A DNA stretch of 64,000 bases, taken from Cyclonatronum proteinivorum. Lineage in GTDB: Bacteria > Bacteroidota > Rhodothermia > Balneolales > Cyclonatronaceae. The notes beneath the pieces are model-generated. The model did no database searches and was not told the DNA's origin. It was given only the letters and a program-made list of their open reading frames with translations. Below are positions 7,112-48,546 of the stretch, in pieces. Made by a program: the position numbers and the translations under genes. The stretch is taken from contig NZ_CP027806.1 of the NCBI RefSeq assembly GCF_003353065.1, positions 2,438,501 to 2,502,500 of the forward strand. Reading direction: 5' to 3'. Within the stretch, counting starts at the first letter, position 1; every line of letters starts with the position of its first letter.

Positions 7112-9332
7112 TAGTGCCCCCGCCGGCCTCGTTATATATTAAGACGTTGGCCGCAGACCCGGAGGCGCCCGCATCGTCAGAACCCGGAAATCCTTGGGTC
7201 CACAGCGAGTTAAACAGCCCGCCAGTGCCGGCTATGGTGCTGTTGGCTACCGGGGAGGTAAACGAAATCCAGCGGGAATGGGCCTCTATTTTGCGCTGGT
7301 AAACCACATTCGCATCTCCGGTAATACCGCCGGAAAAAAGAACCGGCGTATCGGAGCCAATAATCAGACTCCCGCTGCGGCGCACACGCACCTCGTTTTT
7401 GAAATCCGTATTTTGGGTTAGTACCAATGAAGCATTATCAAAAATCATCGGACGATTGGCCGCTGGAACGCTGTTCCCGCGCCAGTTGGAGCCTGTGTTT
7501 AGATCGCCATCTGTGCCCCCGGTCCACAGGCAATCACCGCGTGTACCCCAGATGGGCTTGTTGCTAAATGTGCCGAAATTAAGGGGCTCAAAATTAAATT
7601 GTGGCACCTCCCAGCAGCGGAGATTCCCTCTGAAGCTATTGGCACTTGCAAACATTGAAAGCATTCTGGTAACGCTGCTTACATCCCAACTGCCAATATC
7701 CTGGTTGAAAGCATTGGCATTTATAAACATTCCAAACATATCCGTCACGCTGCTTACGTCCCAGTTGCCGATATCCTGATTGAAGGCACGGGCATCTTCA
7801 AACATACCAACCATATCAGTAACGCTACTCACATCCCAGCTGCCGATATTCTGGTTGAAGGTACGGTCATCCCAAAACAATAACCTCATATTTGTAATCC
7901 CGCTTGTACAAGTGGTGGCGGCATTGGTAGTGTTAATTTGAGCAGCGGTTCTTTTAGTGAAGGTAACATTGGTGCCGTTAATGGTTAATGTGCCTTGGGC
8001 GCCAACACCCGCATCGGGGCACATGACCGTAACGCCGTTCTCTGCAAGGAAAAAATCTGTATTAATCTGAGGGCAGGTTCCCCATACAGGAAGCTTATCT
8101 TCAGTTAACCCGCTGCCAGACGAAAATAAGGAAGGTGCCTCAGTAAAGTTTTCCACACACCATAAGTTCAATTCCTGGCTGAAATTGGCGGCGTCTTGAA
8201 ACATACGAGTCATTTCAGAAACGCTGCTCACATCCCATTTTCCAATATCTTGGTTGAAATTGCCTGCAAGTCTAAACATTCCTTGCATATTCGTCACACT
8301 ACTTACATCCCAGCTGCTAATATCCTGGTTGAAATCGGTGTTAAAAAACATTGCCTGCATAACCGTAACGCTGCTCACATCCCAGCTGCCGATATCCTGG
8401 TTGAAGGTACGGGCATCTCGAAACATACTGTTCATACTCGTCACACTACTTACGTCCCAGCTGCCGATATCCTCGTTGAAGGCATGGGCATCTTCAAACA
8501 TACGAGACATACTCGTCACGCTGCTTACGTCCCAGTTGCCTATATCCTGATTGAAGGCATGGGCATTTCGAAACATATCAGACATATTCGTCACGCTGCT
8601 TACGTCCCAGCTTCCAATATCCTGGTTGAAGGCACGGGCATCTTGAAACATACGAGACATATTCGTCACGCTGCTCACATCCCAGCTGCCGATATCCTCG
8701 TTGAAGGCATTGGCAAATTGAAACAATGCTATCATAATGGTTATCCCGCTGGTGCATGTGGTGGCGGCATTGGTAGTGTTAATTTGAAGTGCGGTTCTTT
8801 TGGTGAAGGTGACATTGGTGCCGTTAATACTTAATGTGCCCTGTTCGCCAACCTCGGCATCGGGGCACATGACCGTAACGCCGTTCTCGGCAAGGAAAAA
8901 TAATGATGGTGTTTCGGAATGCACTTCAGCAGACGGCACTGCATTGATTTCCACGGATGTACCTAACAGGCCTGAAGATTCGTTTGGAGTAAAACTTCCA
9001 TTTGCTTGCGCATCGTAAAAACCCGAAAGCAGGCTTATACAAATAAGGATAGCTAATGCCAGGGTATATTTTGCCAGCCAATAGTTGTTAAGCTGTATTG
9101 ATTTTGTGGTTTTACTATGTTTAGCTCCGGATTTGCAGCGAGTATTGACGGAGCAATTTGTTACAACATTGGTCGCCAATATGGGCTGGTGAACGCATCT
9201 TCCTGAATTATAAATTAGAGTGAGGTCCAGCCGTCCTTTCATCGGTGCGTTTGTTTGTCTTTTCATTGGTGCGTAATTTTTAAAGTACCCATAAGTGCGG
9301 CCATAGGTTTTGTGCAAACAGGCCGCGCTCAA
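7038..9332 (-). CDS. N-terminal part of a surface protein with BspA-like DUF285 repeats
   Basis: The 764-residue frame opens with a polar stretch and then one hydrophobic segment ([20 protein letters not shown], about residues 88-107) that could be a signal sequence. The true start is uncertain, because the long leader before it is unusual and a later non-ATG start is possible. Next come two copies of a module containing [15 protein letters not shown] and [19 protein letters not shown]. Each is followed by tandem 25-residue DUF285/BspA repeats of the form [20 protein letters not shown] (seven plus one degenerate, then three plus one degenerate). The last part ([15 protein letters not shown]) resembles the region before a T9SS tail. 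It ends prematurely at GRGILSVRV because of one extra base in a C5 run. BspA-type repeats are linked to adhesion and matrix binding. Confidence 0.8.
7620..8905 (-). repeat. Two blocks of 75-bp tandem coding repeats, each preceded by a copy of a 160-170-bp module
   Basis: The DUF285 arrays occupy about 8165-8722 (first block in the protein) and 7620-7870 (second block). The unit is 75 bases encoding one [14 protein letters not shown]-type repeat. The non-repeat module upstream of each block (about 8733-8902 and 7888-8050) is also nearly identical, so an entire module-plus-array cassette has been duplicated. There are no variable spacers, so this is not a CRISPR array. Confidence 0.85.
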
Positions 9333-43005: not shown

Positions 43006-43020
43006 TAGAATGATGTTCTA
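43006..43020. promoter_or_regulatory. TetR operator 1: TAGAA-N5-TTCTA
   Basis: TAGAATGATGTTCTA, 15 bp with perfect outer arms, 64 bases upstream of the tolC start. Confidence 0.7.
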
Positions 43021-43028
43021 CTTAAAGG

Positions 43029-43043
43029 TAGAACAATATTCTA
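43029..43043. promoter_or_regulatory. TetR operator 2: TAGAA-N5-TTCTA
   Basis: TAGAACAATATTCTA, centred 23 bases from operator 1, so about two helical turns on the same face. Confidence 0.7.
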
Positions 43044-43967: not shown

Positions 43968-44693
43968 ATGCCTCCCACCCCTGCGGATAAAGCTGCTGCA
44001 GCTGCAGCACGTCCCTTCATTGATGCCATCGACAGCCGTATTGTACCGGAATTCTTTTATTATGTGACCCGCTTCCTTGCGCGGCGGACTTTCAGACGGG
44101 TCTGGCTGCAGAACGACTACGGTTCCGGTAAAGCGCTTCAGAACCGCAGCACCCTTTTCATTGGCAATCACAATGCCTGGTGGGATGCCCTTACGCCGCT
44201 GCTGCTGAATCAGAAGCTGCTGCGGCAGACGCCGCGAGCGGTAATGGAGTGGGAACAGGTGGACCGCTACCCTTTTTTCCGGCGCATTGGCTGCTACTCG
44301 ATTGACCGGAAGGATCCGCGCTCAGCGCTTGGTTCGCTGCGCTACGGCATCGACTGGCTCAACAACGGCACAGCCCGAAATCTGTGGCTCTATCCTGAGG
44401 GCAAAATCACGAATCCGGTACTGCCCGACTCCCCGTTCGAGTCAGGTGTAGGATGGATGCTGCCTCAGCTGGATTCGCATGTCGACCTTGTACCCATCAT
44501 TCAGCATCATCACATGATGCATCACCCGAAACCTGACTTATTTCTCTGGCTCGGTACTCCCTTAAAGCCGGACACGCTGGGTTCAAATAAAAAAGAAATC
44601 ACAGCGAGTCTTCAGCGTCACATCACAAGCATGAAACTTACCCTTGCTGAAAAAGCTGCACCCAAGGAACCCGATTTTAGGCGCCTTGTGTAG
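43968..44693 (+). CDS. 1-acyl-glycerol-3-phosphate-type acyltransferase (possible CruD-like carotenoid glycoside acyltransferase)
   Basis: The 241 residues contain the PlsC/LPLAT motifs: NHNAWWD (H-x4-D, His68 and Asp73), a block II strip FRRIGCYSID, YPEGKITNP (block III) and the VPIIQHHH strip. The family transfers acyl chains to glycerol phosphates or other hydroxyls at the membrane. Next to it are a carotenoid hydratase-like gene and a GT2 glycosyltransferase, the set that makes acylated carotenoid glycosides in green sulfur bacteria (CruD acylates the sugar) and in Salinibacter. That role is inferred from context; the motifs alone cannot separate it from lipid synthesis. Confidence 0.85.
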   Translation: MPPTPADKAAAAAARPFIDAIDSRIVPEFFYYVTRFLARRTFRRVWLQNDYGSGKALQNRSTLFIGNHNAWWDALTPLLLNQKLLRQTPRAVMEWEQVDRYPFFRRIGCYSIDRKDPRSALGSLRYGIDWLNNGTARNLWLYPEGKITNPVLPDSPFESGVGWMLPQLDSHVDLVPIIQHHHMMHHPKPDLFLWLGTPLKPDTLGSNKKEITASLQRHITSMKLTLAEKAAPKEPDFRRLV

Positions 44694-44778
44694 CGTAAGC
44701 CTTTTTCTGTCTTGTCTTCGTAAACTTTATGGGTTCATTTTTTTCGAACTAACCAATCGTGACTGAGCTCATTACCAC

Positions 44779-45903
44779 TTAAAGCGTTTTCCAGGTCCAG
44801 CGGTAAAATGTAGGAGAGCGCTGTACCCAGTGCGGTTTTTGGGAATAGCGGTAGCGCATATTTACCAGAGGCCAGTACAGGCTGTTGTGGATGCGTGCCG
44901 GGCGAATGTACTCGCTAATGCCTGTTGCTTTTTCAGCCGAATTTTCGGTCTCTAAATTGAGCAGGCCGTCAGTGAGGAACCGGTAGTAAAACGGGCCGGA
45001 GTCAATGGTGCGGGAATGCTGAAGCATCACTTTAGTACCGTCGGCTGCGGTGAGTTCGATGGTTCGGGCGGATCGCAGCAGAAAGGCATTGCCCGCAAAG
45101 TTTGACAGGCTCCCGCCATCAAAAGCTGTTACAAGTTGATTGTCGGTATCGAGCAGCCATCCTTTGTAAGAAAGCTCGCCCCCGGCGTTCATGAGATAAT
45201 AGACAAGGGTATGTTTTGGGAAATGCAGCCTCCCCCAGTACCAGTCTTCAAACTCCTGCTTCATGGGTTCGCGACCCAGGTTGTGGTCGTGATAGCCGGT
45301 TCCCTTCCATTGTATCAGGCGTTCTCCCTGCAGCGCATCGGTCAGCCGCAGGTCACATTCTACGCGTGCCCGAGGCTGCGTCAGATTCCAGCCATGCCCT
45401 GCTTCACTGTTGAAATCATCGGTTCTCGGAAGGCTTCCGAACAAATCCCGTGGCGGCACATCGGCAACAAAAAAAAGCGTACCCTGCAGTGTATCTCCCG
45501 AGGGAAGGGCTTCATTCAGTCGGAGTTCATGGTGCAGCTCATGTCCCCTTTTGGTAAGAAACAGCTCATTTTTCCCGATGGATATTCGGAGAAATGTTCC
45601 AATATTTTCATCATCTGAAATCACAACCTCATCCGGCTGATATTCACTCATGCTGTAAAAAACGAGCTTTCCTTTATGATAGAGCGAAAGGGTGATGGCC
45701 GGATGTTTCCATGGAAGGGCTTCGGGATCACCGGCCTCCCAGGCTTTATTATAGCGGGGTGAGAACGGGCAGCCGTCATAAAAAATCCCAACAAAATGCC
45801 ACTCATCTGAAGCATCAGCGGCATCGAAGTACCACCACTCATAGCTTCCCGGCTCGGTTTTATCGGCCGGCAAATCAAATTTAAAATCGGATGTTATTTT
45901 CAT
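44779..45903 (-). CDS. crtC: Carotenoid 1,2-hydratase (CrtC-like)
   Basis: The 374 residues match hydroxyneurosporene synthase/CrtC: PGSYEWWYFDAADASDEWHF at the N terminus, GHGWNLTQPRARVECDLRL, GTGYHDHNLGREPM and DWYWGRLHFPKHTLVYYLMN. CrtC adds water to the 1,2 double bond of acyclic carotenoid ends, making the tertiary hydroxyl that is later glycosylated. The family also contains plain lipocalin-like hydrolases, but the neighbouring GT2 and acyltransferase favour a carotenoid role. The C-terminal part (about 250-374) is less conserved. It diverges from the GT2 gene by 128 bases. Confidence 0.8.
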   Translation of the reverse strand: MKITSDFKFDLPADKTEPGSYEWWYFDAADASDEWHFVGIFYDGCPFSPRYNKAWEAGDPEALPWKHPAITLSLYHKGKLVFYSMSEYQPDEVVISDDENIGTFLRISIGKNELFLTKRGHELHHELRLNEALPSGDTLQGTLFFVADVPPRDLFGSLPRTDDFNSEAGHGWNLTQPRARVECDLRLTDALQGERLIQWKGTGYHDHNLGREPMKQEFEDWYWGRLHFPKHTLVYYLMNAGGELSYKGWLLDTDNQLVTAFDGGSLSNFAGNAFLLRSARTIELTAADGTKVMLQHSRTIDSGPFYYRFLTDGLLNLETENSAEKATGISEYIRPARIHNSLYWPLVNMRYRYSQKPHWVQRSPTFYRWTWKTL

Positions 45904-46031
45904 AGGCCTTAATTTAGCACTGCCTTAGGCTCCGATGCAAAACAGATAATGGCGCCCAAATACTTCTTTAAAGCGCTGTTTATGCGGTATTAAGCTGATA
46001 TGCATCATCCTTATTCATTCATATTTCCTGC

Positions 46032-47216
46032 ATGATTTTCCTCGAAGGAGCACTCCTGACCGGACTCTTTTTCCTGCTGTTCATCACTTTTGTTTTAGTC
46101 CGAAACCGCTTCCAGTTCAAAGGCATTGCTGATTCGGATCGCTCCGAAGATTCCGAACTTAGCGTTGCTATTTGCATCCCGGCGCGTAACGAAGAAAAGG
46201 TTATACGCGCCTGTCTTGATCTGGCACTTAGTCAGAATTACCGCAATACACAGGTGTATGTGTTAGATGACCGCTCAACCGACCGCACGCCACAAATTTT
46301 AGAAGAATTCCAGGCACGTTACCCTGATACCCTGACCATCGTGCGCGGGAAACAGCGGCCCGAAGGATGGCTTGGCAAGCCTTACGCCTGCCATCAGCTG
46401 AGTGAAGTTGCCCGCGAAGACATTTTGATTTTTGTGGATGCAGACACCTGGATGCAGCCCGAGGTTGTAAGTCGGGTTGTAGGCGCATTCAACCGGAACA
46501 ACATCGATTTCATCACTATTTGGCCGGAACAGCGACTGTACACGTTTTGGGAAAAGGTTGTAGTGCCGCTCGTGTATTATGCCCTGCTTGGCCTGCTGCC
46601 GGTTGCCTACACCGAAAGAAAGCCCCGCTGGATGCCCGCCTACTTTCATGAAAAATACCGAAGCCTTTTCGCTGCTGCCTGCGGGCAGTTCATGGCATTC
46701 CGGGCAGAAACGTACCGTCAGATTGATGGTCATGAAGCTGTAAAGAACCATATTGTTGAAGATGTGATGCTGGCCCGCGAAGTAATCGATCATGGTTTTC
46801 GCATGCGCATGTTACACGGCCGCGACGCTTTTTTTTGCAGGATGTACACCTCCGAGCGCGGCATGTTCGAAGGATTCCGGAAAAATTTTCTGGCGGGTTT
46901 CGATTACAATATTCCCCTTTTTGTGGTCATGGCCGTGATGCATTTCGTGAGCTTCCTGTTGCCGCTGCTGGTGCTGGCCGCGGCGATTTTTCTACCTGTC
47001 TCAGGCACAGCGGTCGGTATTTCCGCAGTCATGGTGCTGCTTTTTACCCTGCACCGAATTATGCTTGCCTCATGGATGCGCTGGGAGAGTTCATACGCCT
47101 TTTTGCACGTGTTTGGAGTCGGCTGGTTCCAGCGGTTGGGCCTGATAACCCTCACTGACTATCTGATGGGCCGAAGCATCAGCTGGAAAGGAGATGACAT
47201 CCGGCATCCCAAATAA
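46032..47216 (+). CDS. Family 2 glycosyltransferase, possible CruC-like carotenoid glycosyltransferase
   Basis: The 394 residues have an N-terminal membrane helix (about 4-25), a GT-A domain with ICIPARNEE, DDRSTDRT (Asp79/80), the metal-binding FVDADTWM (Asp136/138) and IVEDVMLAREV, then three or four C-terminal helices (about 290-370). The layout fits membrane GT2 enzymes such as CruC, which glycosylates 1-hydroxylated carotenoids. The divergent crtC and the nearby acyltransferase support that substrate. A hopanoid or glycolipid target is the main alternative. Confidence 0.85.
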   Translation: MIFLEGALLTGLFFLLFITFVLVRNRFQFKGIADSDRSEDSELSVAICIPARNEEKVIRACLDLALSQNYRNTQVYVLDDRSTDRTPQILEEFQARYPDTLTIVRGKQRPEGWLGKPYACHQLSEVAREDILIFVDADTWMQPEVVSRVVGAFNRNNIDFITIWPEQRLYTFWEKVVVPLVYYALLGLLPVAYTERKPRWMPAYFHEKYRSLFAAACGQFMAFRAETYRQIDGHEAVKNHIVEDVMLAREVIDHGFRMRMLHGRDAFFCRMYTSERGMFEGFRKNFLAGFDYNIPLFVVMAVMHFVSFLLPLLVLAAAIFLPVSGTAVGISAVMVLLFTLHRIMLASWMRWESSYAFLHVFGVGWFQRLGLITLTDYLMGRSISWKGDDIRHPK

Positions 47217-47400
47217 GTGCGGGGATAAAAATGGTGCCGGACCTGAGTACCTGTAAGGCCGGACCCAAAACCTGCGCAAACCGAGGCGGAGCGCTTTGGA
47301 GGCGGAGTCGAAAGATCTGGTGATGGGGTTTGGGAGGTTGGTTCGGACGCTCAATTAAAATGTACTGTACTATGTTCAATCCGGAAACCAAAACCCCCAC

Positions 47401-47605
47401 GGCGTCATCCCGGAAACGCACACTTAGGTGCATGATTATAAACGCTATAGCTCAACGGCGTTATCCGGGATCTACCAGCTTCGGCCTGCGACCATGCCGA
47501 TTGCAGGCCTTCAAAATCGAATGCACACATTTCAGGACGAGCCTACAAAACCCGCTATAACAACGCGCCGGCGCCCGCTTGGTAGATCCCGGATAATGCT
47601 GCACA
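47401..47605 (+). repeat. Dispersed repeat (family R4), full copy
   Basis: GGCGTCATCCCGGAAACGC, ACTTAGGTGCATGATTATAA, GCTATAGCTCAACGGCGTTA, TCCGGGATCTACCAGCTTCG and GCTTGGTAGATCCCGGATAA. The two TCTACCA/TGGTAGA ends are inverted. It matches 53638-53757 in the same direction and 30150-30365 inverted. Confidence 0.85.
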
Positions 47606-47705
47606 TCTCTTCGAGATGGTAAAAAAACGCCGAATGGCAGCATTTCCGGGATGACAGCCTCGGAGGTTGGTAGGAGGTGCTTCCGTTCTAAAAAGTGTCA
47701 TTTCG

Positions 47706-47733
47706 GTAAAGACGCAAAATCCTGCGTCTCTAC
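47706..47733. repeat. Dispersed hairpin GTAAAGACGCA...TGCGTCTCTAC, copy 3
   Basis: It matches the hairpins at 14250-14277 and 30026-30053 with a few differences, and lies in an inverted R6 copy spanning about 47680-47870, which includes CTCATGTGAGAGATCCCC. A further, hairpin-less R6 fragment follows at about 48060-48170. Confidence 0.7.
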
Positions 47734-47904
47734 GATGTTTCGAAACCAAAACCAAAAACCGCGTGATCTCGAACGCCGGGGCATGACGACAGCGAAACCA
47801 AAGCCACGGCAACCCGACTTGCCCCGGCAGCACATCGAAGCCTCATGTGAGAGATCCCCTGCGGCTGTTCGGCCCCGATAGGGATCAACGCTGCGGAGCC
47901 CCAC

Positions 47905-47995
47905 CACCACCAGATCCTTCGACTCCGCTGCGTTCCGCTCAGGATGACAGCGACGCCTCCCATCAAGCGGCGCGGCAAGCCGCGCTGGGGGTTGT
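47905..47995. repeat. Palindromic composite repeat (family R5), half copy
   Basis: GATCCTTCGACTCCGCTGCG, TTCCGCTCAGGATGACAG and GGCGCGGCAAGCCGCGC are present; the inverted second arm is missing. Confidence 0.7.
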
Positions 47996-48212
47996 TGTGG
48001 AGCGGTGCTTTCGGGCTACAAAGGTGTCGCTCCTGCCGGAGCTAGTTCGAAATCAAAAAAAAACCGCGTGATCTCGAACGCCGGGGCATGACAACACCGA
48101 AACCAAAGCCACGGCAACCCAACCTGTATCGACAGCACATCGAAGCCTCATGTGAGAGATCCCCTGCGGTTGTTCTGCCCCGACAGGAATAAACGCTGCG
48201 GAGCCCTGCACC

Positions 48213-48362
48213 ACGGGATCCTTCGACTCCGCTGCGCTCCGCTCAGGATGACAGCGCCGCCTCCCATCAAACGGCGCGGCAAGCCGCGCCGGGGGTTCGG
48301 GAAAATGCCCCTGTCATTCTGAGCGGAGCCGGAGCGCAGCGAAGGCGGAGTCGAAAGATCTG
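48213..48362. repeat. Palindromic composite repeat (family R5), copy 3
   Basis: GGATCCTTCGACTCCGCTGC and TCTGAGCGGAGCCGGAGCGC...GGAGTCGAAAGATCT face each other around GGCGCGGCAAGCCGCGCC. The region 47217-48546 between the glycosyltransferase and xerC therefore consists mainly of repeats; the short open frames in it are not genes. Confidence 0.8.
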
Positions 48363-48546
48363 GCATTCAGGACTGGTAGGCTGATTCCCATAAATCCTGT
48401 CAATCCCATAATCCATAAAATCCTGTCCAAACCACAGTCAGGCGGGCAAAGCCCATCCGCGGTCCGCGGTCCGCAGTCCATTACCTGCGATACTCCTCCC
48501 TTTGCTGTATATTATTCCAAAAGCCAACCCAATTCCCAGCCCTGCC

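What the first reader, a model, noticed from the sequence alone, without database searches (positions are those of the whole stretch)
43968..47216. Carotenoid acyl-glycoside genes: crtC, GT2 and acyltransferase side by side
Hydration, glycosylation and acylation are the last three steps to chlorobactene-glucoside-laurate in green sulfur bacteria, where the genes are scattered. Here they seem clustered, suggesting the organism makes a salinixanthin-like pigment. The link to the TetR/efflux unit next door is unexplained.
Basis: partly seen in the sequence, partly recalled or inferred. Interest (0 to 1): 0.5.

Follow-up and report, generated by a model that had tools for sequence, protein, structure and literature searches.

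The report
Carotenoid sugar-ester finishing gene cluster
Three neighbouring genes in a red-orange soda-lake bacterium very probably add water, a sugar and a fatty acid to one end of a carotenoid pigment; the enzymes are of known kinds, but their grouping around this type of hydratase in this bacterial order seems to be new.

Summary
In detail: 43968-44693 (+) encodes a PlsC-type acyltransferase (AT), 44779-45903 (-) a CrtC-type carotenoid hydratase, 46032-47216 (+) a family-2 glycosyltransferase (GT2). Genome length identifies Balneolota strain Omega, whose cultures contain carotenoids. The CrtC keeps the four residues essential in purple-bacterial CrtC. GT2 and AT are the best matches in this genome for the homologues in a genome taken as Chlorobaculum tepidum (presumed CruC and CruD). 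GT2 lies near crtC in 41 of 41 crtC-bearing genomes of the order, AT in 32. Candidates for phytoene synthase, CrtI, two lycopene cyclases, CrtO and CrtD lie elsewhere, so a salinixanthin-like acyl glycoside is the best prediction; no pigment chemistry exists. The TetR/efflux unit next door is not conserved with the cluster and is probably incidental. New here: sampled genomes of sister orders lack crtC and mostly carry the unrelated hydratase CruF, as does one genome of the same order; in at least 16 genomes of other classes, CruF sits beside homologues of this GT2 and AT. The hydratase thus seems exchangeable within one finishing cassette. CrtC in non-phototrophs has a precedent (myxobacteria). 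A new variant of a known kind.

The parts
43968..44693 (+). CruD-like acyltransferase (PF01553), 241 aa; NHNAWWD motif; predicted to acylate the sugar
44779..45903 (-). CrtC-type carotenoid 1',2'-hydratase, 374 aa; H170, W172, Y204, D206
45904..46031 (.). 128-bp gap between the divergent crtC and GT2 genes, presumably holding both promoters (inferred; the sigma-70-type consensus scan listed no site inside it)
46032..47216 (+). CruC-like family-2 glycosyltransferase, 394 aa; predicted to glycosylate the 1'-hydroxyl

Best explanation
The three genes encode the last steps from a carotenoid with an acyclic (psi) end to a carotenoid glycoside fatty-acid ester. The CrtC-type hydratase protonates the C1'-C2' double bond, most likely through Asp206, and water adds to give a tertiary 1'-alcohol. 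The GT2 attaches a sugar, probably glucose, to that alcohol. The acyltransferase then esterifies the sugar with a fatty acid. With the phytoene synthase, CrtI, lycopene cyclase, CrtO-like and CrtD-like candidates elsewhere in the genome, the product should resemble salinixanthin: a 4-keto, 3',4'-didehydro, gamma-carotene-derived 1'-acylglycoside. Shown by sequence: homology, catalytic residues, linkage, presence of candidates for the other steps. Inferred: substrate, sugar, acyl chain, order of steps and final product.
For: Four residues whose alanine mutants are inactive in Rubrivivax CrtC (PMC4717167, abstract and passages) are present at the aligned places in 42 of 42 homologues. The predicted fold is that of the CrtC/AttH/kievitone hydratase/Diels-Alderase group. 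C. tepidum GT2 to this genome: window GT2 at E 6.4e-60, next best 5.3e-5. C. tepidum AT to this genome: the window AT is the only match, E 5.7e-21. GT2-CrtC linkage 41 of 41, AT 32 of 41. CrtC-GT2 adjacency also outside the order (L087, L089, L090). Other pathway candidates. The organism is coloured by carotenoids (PMC6243061, passages). PMC6166724 (passages) describes CrtC, CruC and CruD acting in sequence in C. tepidum.
Against: Function is carried over at about 27% (CrtC), 36% (GT2) and 30% (AT) identity. None of the three reaches a strict NCBIfam carotenoid cut-off; nor do the phytoene synthase, CrtD, CrtO or cyclase candidates. The only SQS_PSY protein scores close to the HpnD squalene-pathway cut-off (253 of 278.6 bits) and far below that of CrtB (290 of 550). 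AT is unlinked in 9 of 41 genomes. One Chlorobiaceae MAG row of a second set lacks the His (19 of 20 keep it). No 2'-hydroxylase was searched for. No pigment structure is known.
Confidence: 0.82

Rival explanations
1. GT2 and AT belong to another lipid pathway (hopanoid or glycolipid glycosylation, phospholipid acylation) and only CrtC acts on carotenoids; the grouping is inherited synteny next to a xerC-like gene.
For: The best NCBIfam model for the GT2 is HpnB, hopene-associated (123.7 bits, cut-off 379). The AT's weak models are phospholipid acyltransferases. XerC follows GT2 in 28 of 28 order loci.
Against: The C. tepidum GT2 also has HpnB as its best model (206.7 bits), so that label does not discriminate. 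CrtC-GT2 adjacency without XerC occurs in three loci outside the order, and in CruF genomes homologues of both lie beside the unrelated hydratase in at least 16 of 79. Carotenoid genes lie close by in several of these loci.
Confidence: 0.1
2. The cluster makes a carotenoid acyl glycoside, but not a salinixanthin-like one: for instance an acyclic product, or one without keto group or 3',4'-desaturation.
For: Proteobacterial CrtC acts on acyclic carotenoids (PMC4717167, passage). CrtO- and CrtD-like proteins are below equivalog cut-offs. One of the two cyclases is next to a Blh gene and may serve retinal.
Against: A second cyclase is present without Blh beside it. C. tepidum CrtC acts in the route to OH-gamma-carotene glucoside laurate (PMC6166724, passage). 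The window protein lies in the same homologue group, though not in the Chlorobi branch.
Confidence: 0.2
3. The 'CrtC' is not a hydratase but another enzyme of the same fold, such as a pericyclase or lyase.
For: Sub-threshold Diels-Alderase domain hit; the best fold matches are fungal Diels-Alderases.
Against: The C. tepidum homologue shows the same Pfam hit at E 0.0011. The four catalytic residues of CrtC are kept. Kievitone hydratase and AttH share the fold. No other hydratase candidate was found in a genome with candidates for the rest of the pathway.
Confidence: 0.05
4. The pigment cluster and the neighbouring TetR/efflux genes form one functional unit.
For: Proximity only: tetR ends 91 bp before the AT start.
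Against: No homologue of the four proteins in 28 same-order loci, three of them of the same genus. A palindrome at 43014-43035 lies between the divergent tolC and tetR and has no second copy in the window at up to 3 mismatches, which suggests that TetR controls its own efflux genes.
Confidence: 0.04

Closest known systems
CrtC-CruC-CruD route of Chlorobaculum tepidum (OH-gamma-carotene / OH-chlorobactene glucoside laurate)
   Same: Homologues of all three enzymes, reciprocal best matches for GT2 and AT; same order of steps described (PMC6166724, passage)
   Different: Here clustered, there at three distant places; host is an aerobic heterotroph; about 27-36% identity
CruF-GT2-AT groups in other Bacteroidota-level classes
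   Same: Homologous GT2 and AT beside a hydratase gene in at least 16 of 79 CruF genomes
   Different: The hydratase is CruF (PF04240), an unrelated family; here CrtC
Salinixanthin route proposed for Rhodothermus marinus
   Same: CrtO, CruC and CruD assigned; acyl glycoside pigment (PMC5822342, passages and section 13)
   Different: That paper found neither CrtC nor CruF; CruD lies in the crtB/crtI operon and CruC elsewhere
CrtC of purple bacteria (Rubrivivax, Thiocapsa)
   Same: Four essential residues and their order
   Different: About 20-23% identity to the two purple/aerobic-phototroph CrtC aligned; reported on acyclic carotenoids

Membership tests
CrtC carotenoid 1,2-hydratase | His, Trp, Tyr and Asp shown essential in Rubrivivax CrtC | tested here: met
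   H170, W172, Y204, D206; alignment with annotated CrtC, 42 of 42, second set 19 of 20 for His and 20 of 20 for the others
CrtC carotenoid 1,2-hydratase | Score above the NCBIfam equivalog cut-off | tested here: not met
   47.2 of 400 bits; the model is built for Rhodobacter-type CrtC, and the C. tepidum homologue gets 38.6
CrtC carotenoid 1,2-hydratase | Hydration of a carotenoid | not testable with these tools
   needs an assay
CruF carotenoid 1,2-hydratase | PF04240 domain | tested here: not met
   no match in this genome; window protein has no such Pfam hit
CruC glycosyltransferase | GT2 fold family and reciprocal best match with the C. tepidum enzyme | tested here: met
   that the C. tepidum gene is cruC rests on genome position and recall (one search found no paper with the locus numbers)
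CruD acyltransferase | PF01553 and reciprocal best match with the C. tepidum enzyme | tested here: met
   same caveat on the identity of the C. tepidum gene
HpnB hopene-associated glycosyltransferase | Score above the TIGR03469 cut-off | tested here: not met
   123.7 of 379.25 bits
Salinixanthin producers | Candidates for CrtB, CrtI, lycopene cyclase, ketolase, 3',4'-desaturase, hydratase, GT and AT | tested here: met
   candidates for all eight, mostly below equivalog cut-offs
Salinixanthin producers | 2'-hydroxylase and the pigment itself | not tested
   no search made for a 2'-hydroxylase; carotenoids reported without structure (PMC6243061, passages)

The most novel reading that the evidence does not exclude
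A non-photosynthetic order (Balneolota) uses a green-sulfur-type CrtC in a finishing cassette that elsewhere in the phylum is built around CruF, and the salinixanthin-like pigment it makes is the native carotenoid partner of the Na+-pumping rhodopsin that this organism also encodes, which keeps the NDQ residues and a glycine at the place of KR2 Gly171.
Probability: 0.12. Interest if true: 0.65.

Novelty: new variant of a known kind. Interest (0 to 1): 0.4.

Why it matters
One paper divides the hydratases into CrtC on acyclic carotenoids of photosynthetic bacteria and CruF on monocyclic carotenoids of non-photosynthetic ones (PMC4717167, passage). Myxobacterial crtC already breaks that division (PMC2889829, passage). 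An order of aerobic heterotrophs with CrtC in a cassette that elsewhere carries CruF breaks it more widely, makes hydratase exchange a testable case of non-orthologous replacement, and names concrete enzymes for making acyl-glycoside carotenoids. It also predicts such a pigment in an organism with a working sodium-pumping rhodopsin; for a related pump, DDR2, the native carotenoid is unknown (PMC10026069, passages).

Tried and rejected
Viral contigs with the CrtC query: no relative. PDB sequence search with CrtC: nothing meaningful. HpnB label for the GT2: not discriminating, because the C. tepidum homologue gets it too. Diels-Alderase reading: same Pfam hit in the C. tepidum homologue. CarR/CrtYcd-type cyclase: absent; Lycopene_cycl proteins found instead. 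Efflux link: rejected. CT locus numbers: the papers listed for them (8 of 15 shown) are on other subjects. In one search the row L182_Ctep was mis-extracted (13 aa) and is left out of the AT motif count; the right ORF is. Counts rest on coordinates typed; the place lists are truncated, so counts for CruF genomes are lower bounds. Of 40 CrtC loci taken out, 28 are of the order and 12 from outside. Not searched: hopanoid cyclase, GGPP synthase, 2'-hydroxylase.

I also added that in the sister orders of the class the GT2 and AT are mostly not near CruF.
Full report
What is there. The three ORFs are real and at the stated places: a PF01553 acyltransferase (AT, 43968-44693, +), a CrtC-type hydratase (44779-45903, -) and a GT2 glycosyltransferase (46032-47216, +). 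crtC and GT2 diverge from a shared 128-bp gap; the AT converges on crtC. The genome is one contig of 4,294,247 bases, exactly the length given for Balneolota strain Omega, GenBank CP027806 (PMC6243061, passages); the full name Cyclonatronum proteinivorum is recalled. The same paper (passages) reports red-orange cultures due to carotenoids and a working Na+-pumping rhodopsin.

Hydratase. The protein matches the NCBIfam carotenoid 1,2-hydratase at E 1.8e-12 but far below the equivalog cut-off; the homologue in G106, taken as Chlorobaculum tepidum, scores lower still. PMC4717167 (abstract and passages) reports that alanine mutants of His239, Trp241, Tyr266 and Asp268 of Rubrivivax CrtC are inactive. 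In an alignment with annotated CrtC of Roseobacter litoralis and Thiodictyon, H170, W172, Y204 and D206 are invariant, with the same HxW and YxD pattern. They are present in 42 of 42 homologues (own, 40 loci and C. tepidum). In a second set, 20 of 20 rows keep Trp, Tyr and Asp and 19 of 20 the His; the Chlorobiaceae MAG row L106 has Leu. An AlphaFold model (mean pLDDT 84.1) matches fungal lipocalin-type Diels-Alderases first (E 1.2e-15, 12% identity), then kievitone hydratase, 25-phosphosteroid lyase and AttH.

Glycosyltransferase and acyltransferase. The C. tepidum GT2 finds the window GT2 as by far its best match in this genome (E 6.4e-60, next 5.3e-5), and the C. tepidum acyltransferase finds only the window AT (E 5.7e-21). 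The reverse searches hit the same C. tepidum genes. G106 is taken as C. tepidum from its contig of 2,154,946 bases (size recalled). Its three genes lie at about 0.31, 0.91 and 1.89 Mb, which fits the locus numbers that I recall for crtC, cruD and cruC (CT0301, CT0967, CT1987); no paper confirmed these. All 33 usable AT rows, own included, share NHxxWWD. This genome has 16 GT2 matches in all, so a GT2 as such is unremarkable; the reciprocal match and the linkage carry the argument.

Conservation in the order. In a sample of 296 genomes of the phylum (which here includes the green sulfur bacteria), CrtC occurs in 124 and CruF (PF04240) in 79. Of the 42 genomes of the same order (own included), 41 have CrtC and one, G286, has CruF and no CrtC. 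GT2 lies within 6 kb of CrtC in 41 of 41 and AT in 32 of 41. In the 28 loci that I took out of the 40 other genomes, CrtC and GT2 are divergent in 28 of 28, AT is convergent in the 20 where it was found, and a XerC-like gene lies on the GT2 strand beside it in 28 of 28.

Outside the order. Of 32 genomes of other orders in the class, none has CrtC and 25 have CruF (totals counted from the kinship rows). In these sister orders the AT is near CruF only in two listed cases (G151, G073), no listed GT2 is near CruF, and GT2 homologues are weak, so the cassette as such is not shown there. It is shown in other classes: over all 79 CruF genomes, AT lies within 6 kb of CruF in at least 22, GT2 in at least 19, both in at least 16, and those 16 are all rows of 'same phylum'. 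CrtC-GT2 adjacency outside the order is seen in 3 of the 12 loci taken out (L087, L089, L090) and, by listed coordinates, in G027, G112, G136, G144 and, with a weak CrtC piece, G023. Four genomes have both hydratases (G087, G117, G213, G252).

Trees. Balneolota CrtC rows (own, 28 loci and a named Balneolaceae MAG, L176) form one clade with full support. In the GT2 tree, CruF-linked and CrtC-linked enzymes interleave outside the order, while the GT2 of G286 groups with the order (96/98). In G286 GT2 and AT are neighbours and CruF is on another contig. This fits an exchange of the hydratase in a kept cassette; its direction is not resolved, and some rows have long branches.

Rest of the pathway. 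Elsewhere are one SQS_PSY protein, a strong crtI-family protein (601.6 bits), a second crtI-family protein nearest to CrtD models, and a CrtO-like protein. Two Lycopene_cycl proteins are present, one directly followed by a Blh-type carotene dioxygenase gene. The phytoene synthase candidate is below all cut-offs and comes nearer to that of HpnD than to that of CrtB. No CruF and no CarR/CrtYcd-type cyclase were found. Together these predict a 4-keto, 3',4'-didehydro, 1'-glycosylated and acylated gamma-carotene derivative. The structure of salinixanthin is recalled; PMC5822342 (passages and section 13) describes salinixanthin in Rhodothermus marinus with CrtO, CruC and CruD assignments and neither CrtC nor CruF found.

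The efflux unit. tolC, hlyD and an ABC-2 permease gene diverge from tetR. A palindrome at 43014-43035 between tolC and tetR has no second copy in the window at up to 3 mismatches. None of the four proteins had a homologue at E 1e-6 in the 28 order loci. The simplest reading is a self-contained efflux unit that happens to lie next door.

A possible rhodopsin link. The one rhodopsin of this genome (L203:1444-2319) matches first a chain deposited as 'Xanthorhodopsin' (8jh0, E 3.7e-122) and then sodium-pumping rhodopsins (E about 1e-104). It keeps the N, D and Q of the NDQ motif and, by my count on the printed alignment, has Gly at the place of KR2 Gly171. A related pump, DDR2, binds salinixanthin in vitro without detected efficient energy transfer, and its native carotenoid is unknown; KR2 has the same glycine, and its binding of carotenoid is reported otherwise (PMC10026069, passages). 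That the pigment predicted here is such a partner is speculation.

Novelty. Library searches joining Balneola, Balneolota, Balneolaceae, Cyclonatronum, Fodinibius or Gracilimonas with carotenoid, CrtC, CruF, salinixanthin or xanthorhodopsin (20 of 29, 20 of 95, 15 of 109 and 25 of 156 papers shown) listed no title or abstract start about CrtC or such a cluster in this phylum. Most subscription papers are not held. Myxobacterial crtC (PMC2889829, passage) shows that CrtC in non-phototrophs is not new in itself. The enzymes are known kinds; the clustered, order-wide CrtC version is a new variant.

Noticed in passing
L188:6601-8352 (+) in G151; L189:5302-7845 (-) in G030: CruF (PF04240) fused to phytoene synthase (PF00494) in one ORF of the sister orders; in L188 it is followed by a PF01553 acyltransferase and a CrtI and preceded by a MerR-B12 regulator. 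In L189 both domains fall in one ORF by coordinates. Such a fusion may be the hydratase that was not found in Rhodothermus marinus (PMC5822342).
   Followed up: partly
L203:1444-2319 (-), genome 1221085-1221816: Na+-pump-type rhodopsin with NDQ residues and a glycine at the place of KR2 Gly171.
   Followed up: partly
L198:551-2610 (-) and L197:1429-2637 (-): Two lycopene-cyclase-family genes; one overlaps the start of a Blh-type dioxygenase gene (retinal supply), the other stands without one. They may serve different products.
   Followed up: partly
window 43014-43035: Exact palindrome with 8-nt arms between the divergent tolC and tetR genes, a likely TetR operator; no second copy in the window.
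   Followed up: partly
window 47217-48501: About 1.3 kb of repeat-rich DNA between the GT2 and the xerC-like gene, which are mostly under 120 bp apart in relatives; related repeats at about 30.2-30.7, 35.6-36.5 and 53.6-53.8 kb.
   Followed up: partly
window 7606-8826: Repeat family with copies spaced by 75 nt.
   Followed up: no
L106:5001-6122: CrtC homologue of a Chlorobiaceae MAG with Leu in place of the catalytic His.
   Followed up: no
L186 and L187 (G286): The one same-order genome without CrtC keeps neighbouring GT2 and AT genes and has a CruF on another contig.
   Followed up: partly
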